Shown: one piece after another, positions 47,896-48,610 of the stretch
Layout of the letters: every line of letters begins with the position of its first letter
Numbering within the stretch: position 1 is the stretch's first letter
Assembly: GCA_024280855.1 (NCBI GenBank)
Contig: JAJRPG010000090.1
Location: 1-48,610 of the forward strand
Origin: Planctomycetota bacterium
GTDB taxonomy: Bacteria > Planctomycetota > Phycisphaerae > UBA1845
Direction: 5' to 3'
Length of the DNA: 48,610 nucleotides
Position numbers and translations under genes: made by a program
The notes under the pieces: generated by a model
What the model was told of the DNA's origin: nothing
The model's database searches: none
The model's input: the letters and a program-made list of their open reading frames with translations, nothing else

Positions 47896-48372
47896 CTAGT
47901 ACTTCAAACCATCTTTACGCAGGTGAACATAGGGCTTGGCCTCAATATCCCCTTCGCCTGCTTCGACCGTAGCCGCGAAAACAATATGATCGCCAACCGA
48001 CATTTGACTGACGATCACACACCCCATCTTGGCGATAGCGTCAGCTAAGACAGGCCCATACTCTGATGGCTCCGTAGACACTCCCTCGAAGGCGTCTTCA
48101 TCAAGTGAAAACCCTTTCCCGAAATGCTTGAACATCGCAGTCGGGTTTTCGCCAATCACATTTAGCACAAACCGAGATGATCCTTCCAGCAGCGACAACA
48201 TTGGCCTACCACCTTGTAACGCAACCGTAATCGACGGCGGCTCAAAGCAGGCCTGCTGCATCCACGAGACTAACATGCCAGAAGAATTGCCTTCATGGGC
48301 ACATGTAAGAATGGCACATCCACTTGGCATACGCCCGATGGCTTCGCCGATATGTTGACTATCAGACTTCAT
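47896..48372 (-). CDS. flavin reductase-like domain protein
   Basis: This 158-aa FMN-binding split-barrel protein of the flavin-reductase/DIM6-NTAB family. The fold pattern is visible in GRMPSGCAILTCAHEGNSSGMLVSWMQQACFEPPSITVAL (in part), then RFVLNVIGENPTAMFKHFGKG and MGCVIVSQMSVGDHIVFAATVEAG. Proteins of this type reduce FMN with NAD(P)H for a partner oxygenase, or are flavin-binding proteins of unknown role. No partner gene is next to it. AGGTGAG lies about 9 nt before the ATG. Confidence 0.85.
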   Translation of the reverse strand: MKSDSQHIGEAIGRMPSGCAILTCAHEGNSSGMLVSWMQQACFEPPSITVALQGGRPMLSLLEGSSRFVLNVIGENPTAMFKHFGKGFSLDEDAFEGVSTEPSEYGPVLADAIAKMGCVIVSQMSVGDHIVFAATVEAGEGDIEAKPYVHLRKDGLKY

Positions 48373-48511
48373 ATTTTCGACTCACCTATAACTGAGATGC
48401 AACGAGTGAAAAACTATTCCACACACCTTGACAGAATCGTAAATGCAGGCCGCAATACACGCAAGTTAGCGACACAGTACCGTAGATGGGGATGAAAGCC
48501 CGTTACTCCTA

Positions 48512-48545
48512 GGTTAGTCTATCGAGCGTTGTCTTGAGACTAGCC
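48512..48545 (+). other. hairpin upstream of the IS110-like transposase, candidate bridge-RNA segment
   Basis: GGTTAGTCT (48512-48520) pairs with AGACTAGCC (48537-48545): 9 bp, one G-U, with a 16-nt loop. It ends 25 bp before the probable transposase ATG. IS110-type elements carry their bridge RNA in this non-coding end. A TTGACA at 48428-48433 could drive transcription. The rest of the RNA cannot be modelled from the part visible. Confidence 0.25.
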
Positions 48546-48570
48546 CAGCTAACGCAAAGGAGCAACGAAC

Positions 48571-48610
48571 ATGAATGATTCTAAGGTATTTGTCGGATTA
48601 GACTACCACA
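48571..48610 (+). CDS. IS110-family transposase, N-terminal fragment cut by window end
   Basis: An AAAGGAG at 48556-48562 precedes ATG 48571 by 8 nt. The visible residues MNDSKVFVGLDYH match the start of IS110/IS1111 DEDD transposases, where the first catalytic Asp sits in a VGLDxH/VGIDxS strand. Only 13 codons are seen, so the call rests on one short motif plus the structured upstream region. It would place the left end of an insertion sequence somewhere between 48373 and 48510. Confidence 0.55.
   Translation, partial: MNDSKVFVGLDYH

What the first reader, a model, noticed from the sequence alone, without database searches (positions are those of the whole stretch)
48373..48610. Left end of an IS110-like element with a possible bridge-RNA region
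The last bases open a DEDD-type transposase, and the 198-bp non-coding stretch before it holds a 9-bp hairpin, a smaller GGG/CCC stem near 48488-48501 and a TTGACA. In IS110 elements a bridge RNA with target and donor loops is encoded in this place, so the element may be an RNA-guided recombinase of a planctomycete-type host.
Basis: partly seen in the sequence, partly recalled or inferred. Interest (0 to 1): 0.55.

Follow-up and report, generated by a model that had tools for sequence, protein, structure and literature searches.

The report
IS1111-type element, guide RNA elsewhere
The window ends inside a small jumping gene that carries its own guide RNA for choosing landing sites, but the guide lies at the far end of the element and not here; what sits here is a short end whose hairpin seems to hide the start signal of the transposase gene.

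Summary
The DNA features are real, but the reading needs correcting. The window is the end of contig C3, which breaks inside a repeated element with at least 8 left and 6 right ends in its genome. The element starts at about 48484, so only about 85 of the 198 bp belong to it; TTGACA is host flank. The gene is an IS110-family DEDD transposase. The anatomy is IS1111-type: short left end, subterminal inverted repeats, long 3' non-coding region. The guide RNA therefore lies 3' of the gene, outside the window, as published for IS1111. There, one guide is the reverse complement of the right-hand target flank in 11 of 12 elements; 0 of 100,000 swaps did as well. A covariance model of this RNA finds all six held-out right ends of the genome and nothing in the window. 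In this genome the target is an REP-like palindrome. The left-end hairpin is conserved, but as a transposase leader: the left repeat pairs with the Shine-Dalgarno region in 14 of 14 predicted folds, weakest in the window's copy. My searches found no description of that. New member of a known kind.

The parts
48373..48483 (.). Host flank left of the insertion, not part of the element (holds TTGACA at 48428-48433)
   Evidence: Not shared by the other left ends; 48361-48475 recurs at C32:1159-1274; colinear with G001 and G002 host loci up to about 48469
48484..48485 (+). Core dinucleotide AG, shared by target and element junction
   Evidence: Empty REP copies read CGTAGGTCGGG, occupied ones CGTAG|ATGGGG ... 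CATAGA|AGGTCGGG; relatives have AG, TG or CG here
48486..48570 (+). Left end (LE) non-coding part of the element, 85 bp
   Evidence: Common to the copies that reach this far; 75-87 nt in 12 of 13 relatives and 116 in L076, measured to the likely ATG
48492..48504 (+). Left subterminal inverted repeat ATGAAAGCCCGTT (right partner AATGGGCTTTCAT, 12 of 13)
   Evidence: Right ends L047-L052; exact 15-bp repeats in L017, L077 and the G176 copies
48506..48510 (+). Anti-Shine-Dalgarno strand CTCCT pairing with AGGAG at 48558-48562
   Evidence: MFE fold, 5 of 5 SD bases paired, but only 5 helix pairs, the fewest of 14 elements
48512..48545 (+).
   Evidence: inner hairpins of different sequence in the folds of relatives
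48558..48562 (+). Shine-Dalgarno AGGAG of the transposase gene
48571..48610 (+). 5' end of the DEDD transposase gene (13 codons to the contig end)

Best explanation
The window ends in the left end of an IS1111-type insertion sequence of about 1.4 kb (length from the relative L017). The transposase works with a non-coding RNA encoded in the right end, 3' of the gene and outside the window. One internal loop of that RNA carries a segment complementary to the top strand of the right target flank, followed by a segment equal to the left target flank; a second loop reads the element's own ends. In this genome the guides direct insertion into an REP-like intergenic palindrome (CGTAG|GTCGGGTCATCGACCC) with an AG core. 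Shown by sequence: family, anatomy, boundaries, guide-target matching across relatives, conserved RNA fold. Inferred: that the RNA is made, binds the transposase and is needed, by analogy with tested IS1111 elements; that the joined ends form a promoter; and that the left-end hairpin masks the transposase ribosome-binding site and so lowers translation.
For: Transposase families. sTIRs: 15 bp exact in L017, L077 and the G176 copies, 11 bp in L079 and L082. LE 75-87 nt to the likely ATG in 12 of 13 relatives; RE 132-334 nt in 11 relatives (L076's short RE reflects an ORF that runs into the RNA). Right guide: the longest word shared by the RE and the reverse complement of the right flank averages 8.3 cognate versus 5.8 swapped, 7-9 nt in 11 of 12 elements, 0 of 100,000 permutations; of 4 further elements not used there, 3 match by 8-9 nt at the guide position. 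Left guide, anchored by hand: 72 of 98 positions, 44 of 70 without the core, 0 of 100,000 permutations each. The core in the donor guide equals the element's core (AG, TG or CG) in 13 of 13 rows of A1, by my reading. RNAalifold: 27 pairs, 10 with changes on both sides. The model, built without the own genome, finds its 6 right ends (E 5.7e-16 to 8.1e-4) and nothing in the window. Own genome: 4 of 6 right flanks begin AGGTCGGG; empty copies of the repeat are present. Guide order matches the published IS1111 order.
Against: Two of 16 elements fail at the right guide (L078, L103). In one search some swapped flank equals or beats the cognate one for 5 of 12 (L017, L077, L078, L080, L081), and the 14-base flank used there includes one base of the element, which is part of the matched word in 6 of 12. 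In the own genome one right flank (C22) does not match the guide and one (C48) has one mismatch; only 4 of 8 left flanks end in CGTAG, the rest in GTAG alone. The remnant L112 has donor core CG but junction AG. The right donor guide matches only in part by eye and was not tested. Exact sTIRs of 9 bp or more at the expected place were found in only 8 of 20 loci; the rest are imperfect. With stricter filters the model finds only 3 of the 6 own right ends. The element was never seen whole in this genome: about 220 bp are missing by comparison with L017, and the pairing of this left end with C32's right end rests on synteny. The covariation term is modest (-2.0 of -27.3 kcal/mol). No expression data.
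Confidence: 0.93

Rival explanations
1. The bridge RNA is encoded in the left end, as in the IS110 group proper.
For: The left end has a conserved hairpin; a left-end bridge RNA is the rule in the IS110 group.
Against: Only about 85 bp of the stretch belong to the element; the guide-bearing RNA is at the right end in the 13 aligned relatives; the model has no match in the window; the left end is filled by sTIR, hairpin and Shine-Dalgarno.
Confidence: 0.03
2. The left-end helix acts at the DNA level: the Shine-Dalgarno region is a third, inverted recombinase-binding copy of the sTIR, not an RNA mask.
For: The same letters serve as the sTIR, and the SD region resembles its inverse.
Against: The SD region pairs better with the left strand than with the same strand of the right end in 12 of 12 elements; the SD is paired in 14 of 14 predicted folds. 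Neither excludes a DNA role.
Confidence: 0.3
3. Targets are chosen by recognition of palindrome shape by the protein; the guide matches are incidental.
For: Targets in the own genome are palindromic repeats, and the flanks of several relatives look palindromic by eye.
Against: Guide and target change together across relatives, including the core.
Confidence: 0.04

Closest known systems
IS1111 group elements with seekRNA (ISEc11, ISKpn4, ISPst6, ISPa11; Siddiquee et al. 2024, PMC11187229; parts 1-3 of 9 of the text and passages read)
   Same: DEDD transposase plus PF02371 domain, GL-P----SG motif (seen), sTIRs, long 3' non-coding region, segment complementary to the top strand 5' of the segment matching the bottom strand; ISPa11 also targets a REP
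   Different: A planctomycete clade with a REP-like target of its own; best identity 32.9% among the 30 plasmid records listed of 270. No direct comparison with those named elements was made
IS621 and bridge RNAs (Durrant et al. 2024, PMC11208160; section 12 whole and passages read)
   Same: Two-loop RNA with target and donor guides and a core dinucleotide (core as I recall it for IS621); related transposase (PDB 8wt6, E 8.7e-16)
   Different: In the IS110 group the RNA lies in the left end; here in the right end, with reversed guide order and long sTIRs
IS4321 (plasmid R751, NC_001735)
   Same: IS1111 family member (Partridge and Hall 2003, title only, in a reference list; the paper is not held); transposase 25% identical; its left repeat also pairs with the SD region, 10 bp with a 2-base interruption
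   Different: By that title it targets the terminal repeats of Tn21-family transposons; distant in sequence

Membership tests
IS110/IS1111 superfamily | DEDD (RuvC-like) N-terminal domain and Transposase_20 C-terminal domain | tested here: met
   PF01548 75.9 bits (cut-off 29) and PF02371 76 bits (cut-off 21.3) in the 292-aa copy C28; NF033542 196 bits, cut-off 140
IS1111 group | Subterminal inverted repeats of about 7-17 bp | tested here: met
   Own ends ATGAAAGCCCGTT / AATGGGCTTTCAT, 12 of 13; exact 15 bp in L017, L077 and the G176 copies, 11 bp in L079 and L082; not found as exact 9-mers at the right place in 12 of 20 loci
IS1111 group | Short left end, long 3' non-coding region | tested here: met
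   Window LE 85 bp; own RE at least 209 bp (L047); L017 82 and 291 nt
IS1111 group | Guide RNA in the right end, top-strand complement first, bottom-strand match second | tested here: met
   own RE reads CCCGACCT and later CCGTAG
IS1111 group | Promoter formed by the abutted ends | tested here: inconclusive
   A TTGA[CT]-type hexamer lies 17 bp before GA-core-AT in 11 of 11 relatives, but for L017 the fixed frame gives GG instead of the core AG; the -10 match is weak and there are no transcription data
IS1111 group | RNA co-purifies with and is required by the transposase | not testable with these tools
   Needs an experiment
IS110 group proper (IS621-like) | Long left end holding the bridge RNA | tested here: not met
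   LE 85 bp; model R1 has no match in the window at E<=1

The most novel reading that the evidence does not exclude
The left subterminal repeat of IS1111-type elements has a second job: in the mRNA it forms a conserved, co-varying helix with the Shine-Dalgarno region and keeps transposase translation low, so one stretch serves as recombination end and as translational lock. Distant relatives (7 of 13 scored have a printed z of -3.0 or lower) and IS4321 show a similar pairing.
Probability: 0.45. Interest if true: 0.5.

Novelty: new member of a known kind. Interest (0 to 1): 0.36.

Why it matters
A clade of planctomycete IS1111-type elements gives a natural series in which both guides, the core and the target changed together, useful for learning the programming rules of right-end bridge RNAs (which core dinucleotides are allowed, how many guide bases must match). 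If the leader helix is real regulation, it would explain how such elements keep transposase low, and would matter to anyone who expresses these systems from native leaders.

Tried and rejected
Left-end bridge RNA: rejected (above). Rfam, gathering threshold on five loci and E<=1 on window 48300-48610: no match, so no curated family names either structure. The exact-word test for the left guide over the whole right end was weak (permutation 3,277 of 100,000); I then anchored the left guide at the core by hand, a choice made after seeing the data. The automatic sTIR search failed in 12 of 20 loci whose repeats are imperfect or cut. A first cut of the RNA region took wrong starts for several loci and was redone. 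Alignment A2 of the left ends misplaces the SD side of some rows (L081, L082, L084), so I counted the helix from single folds instead. The pair table at the end was a script error (indices reversed) and was redone. In one search the start codon was chosen automatically; L089 (50.9% identical) gave z -0.1, probably from a wrong start, and L041, L042 and L045 gave no hit. The genome-contig scan found one relative only. Solved-structure hits to orotidine decarboxylase I take as chance. For the leader helix, searches gave 1, 1, 0 and 2 papers: the first is Siddiquee et al., where the term refers to a cargo gene; the other three I saw in the listing only, and their titles are on other subjects. Searches were more general. 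Most subscription papers are not held; TnPedia and ISfinder could not be searched. I ran no structure prediction. Orphan RNAs: model matches without a transposase found nearby by tblastn (L113, L123) look like degenerate remnants; not followed.

Full report
What is in the window. The window is contig C3 of genome G000, which ends at base 48610. Comparing the left ends puts the boundary at GTAG|ATGGGG, window 48482-48486. The 111 bp before it (48373-48483) are host DNA: 48361-48475 is found again at C32:1159-1274 at 93%, and the flank up to about 48469 is colinear with loci in two same-genus genomes.

The gene. The longest copy (C28, L006) encodes 292 aa before its contig ends; Pfam finds DEDD_Tnp_IS110 and Transposase_20, NCBIfam the IS110 RNA-guided transposase model. 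The motif GL-P----SG that Siddiquee et al. give for IS1111 transposases is present as GLTPRNASSG. The full relative L017 (76% identical over the 292 aa) has 337 aa.

Anatomy. L017 has an 82-nt left end, a 291-nt right end and a 15-bp subterminal inverted repeat. With its right end I found six right ends in the own genome (C48, C8, C32, C86, C27, C22), ending in GGGCTTTCATAGA, or GGGCTTTCATAG on C32. Short left end, long right end and long sTIR are the published marks of the IS1111 group, whose RNA lies in the right end (Durrant et al., section 12; Siddiquee et al.). Exact repeats of 9 bp or more at the expected place were found in 8 of 20 loci; the others are imperfect or cut.

Target. Four of six right flanks begin AGGTCGGG, C48 begins AGGCCGGG, C22 AGATAGCT. 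The own genome has 20 hits of TAGGTCGGGNCATCGACCCGAC with up to 2 mismatches and none of the reversed control; some hits are the two arms of one repeat and some are the occupied sites. Empty copies read mostly GTAGGTCGGG or CGTAGGTCGGG. All eight left flanks end in GTAG, four of them in CGTAG. So the core is AG and the target an REP-like palindrome. The left flank on C3 and the genes on C32 lie next to each other in G001, and about 1.2 kb apart in G002, so the window copy's right end is probably the one on C32; that is an inference.

Guides. The own right end contains CCCGACCT, the reverse complement of AGGTCGGG, and further on CCGTAG. In 11 complete relatives plus the own element I asked for the longest word shared by the right end and the reverse complement of 14 bases at the right junction (the first is still an element base; it is part of the matched word in 6 of 12): cognate mean 8.33, swapped mean 5.76, 7-9 nt in 11 of 12, 0 of 100,000 permutations reaching the cognate total. 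L078 fails, and in five rows (L017, L077, L078, L080, L081) some swapped flank is as good or better. The four G176 copies were counted once (L080), the G220 copies once (L084); L074 and L079 lack a right junction and were left out. The model search brought further loci, of which I printed 15: four have a full target loop and a recognisable right end, and L108, L112 and L118 match by 8-9 nt in the guide while L103 matches only by 7 nt outside it. The other 11 lack one or the other (L117 is shortened in the target loop) and were not counted. L112's donor core (CG) does not fit its junction (AG); it is a remnant. The left guide, anchored at the core in 14 elements, matches 72 of 98 positions, 44 of 70 without the core, 0 of 100,000 permutations each. 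The core is AG in most, TG in G176 and CG in L081, L083 and L085 (L081's frame in that output is one base off and was corrected afterwards), and the donor guide carries the same core in 13 of 13 rows of alignment A1, by my reading. The permutations ignore relatedness.

RNA fold. Thirteen right ends aligned (A1) give 27 pairs, 10 with changes on both sides: a basal stem and two similar internal loops, each framed by GCTC/GGGC-type stems. Model R1 was built without the own genome. In a search of 31 sources it found all six own right ends, and L025 and L089, which were not in A1, and nothing in the window at E<=1. In 100 relative genomes 17 have a match at E<=0.001; there, with stricter filters, only 3 of the 6 own right ends were reported.

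The hairpin in the window. In 14 elements the left sTIR and the bases after it are complementary to the region from the Shine-Dalgarno towards the start codon: cognate duplex mean -22.6 kcal/mol, swapped -16.2, 0 of 20,000 permutations as good; the window copy is the weakest at -12.1. In the single folds the helix has 5 pairs in the window and 9-16 in the other 13, and the SD is paired (3-5 of 5 bases) in 14 of 14; in 10 of 14 by the left-repeat strand, in L077, L079, L083 and L085 mostly by another hairpin; start-codon bases are paired only in L083 and L085. Against shuffled leaders 12 of 14 have z of -3 or lower, versus 1 of 11 host ORF leaders from the window; the window copy and L084 (both -1.6) do not reach it. 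The SD region pairs better with the left than with the right repeat in 12 of 12. Of 13 relatives at 23-31% identity with a scorable leader, 7 have a printed z of -3.0 or lower; 3 others of the list gave no hit, and I did not establish which of these are IS1111-type. IS4321 has a 10-bp version at -12.4 kcal/mol in both copies of R751, not tested against shuffles. This is a prediction of an RNA mask; a DNA role of the same letters is not excluded.

Promoter. TTGA[CT]-type hexamers stand 17 bp before GA-core-AT across the joined ends in 11 of 11 relatives in a fixed frame; in L017, whose junction lacks one A, that frame shows GG where the core is AG. This is as expected for the junction promoter described for IS1111 elements. 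By position such a transcript would still carry the left strand of the helix; this is inference.

Verdict. An ordinary but very well supported member of the IS1111 group. The finding's site is its left end, not its bridge RNA. The leader helix is the part that may be new.

Noticed in passing
window 48361-48475 and G000:C32:1159-1274 (L008): A 115-bp intergenic stretch is duplicated at 93% and appears to bracket the insertion, an REP pair and a 311-aa ORF (C32:235-1170, minus) that is absent from the syntenic place in G001; a DNA search of G001 and G002 with that region hit only the REP part.
   Followed up: partly
G000, 20 hits; G001, G002: REP-like palindrome TAGGTCGGGTCATCGACCCGAC, often as two inverted arms; related copies in both same-genus genomes (15 matches in G001, 1 in G002).
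   Followed up: partly
L049 about 119-131, L017 about 2793-2806: The right junction lacks one A (CATAG|AGG instead of CATAGA|AGG) in C32 and L017; unexplained.
   Followed up: no
L113 1501-1636 and L123 1501-1591 (G046): Degenerate bridge-RNA-like matches with no transposase found within about 1.5 kb by tblastn.
   Followed up: no
window 48492-48512: The left sTIR holds an ATG that opens a tiny leader frame (MKARYS, stop right after the anti-SD strand); most relatives have an ATG there too.
   Followed up: no
G000:C28 and G000:C32: Both contigs are listed with the same length, 18733 bases, though they differ in content.
   Followed up: no
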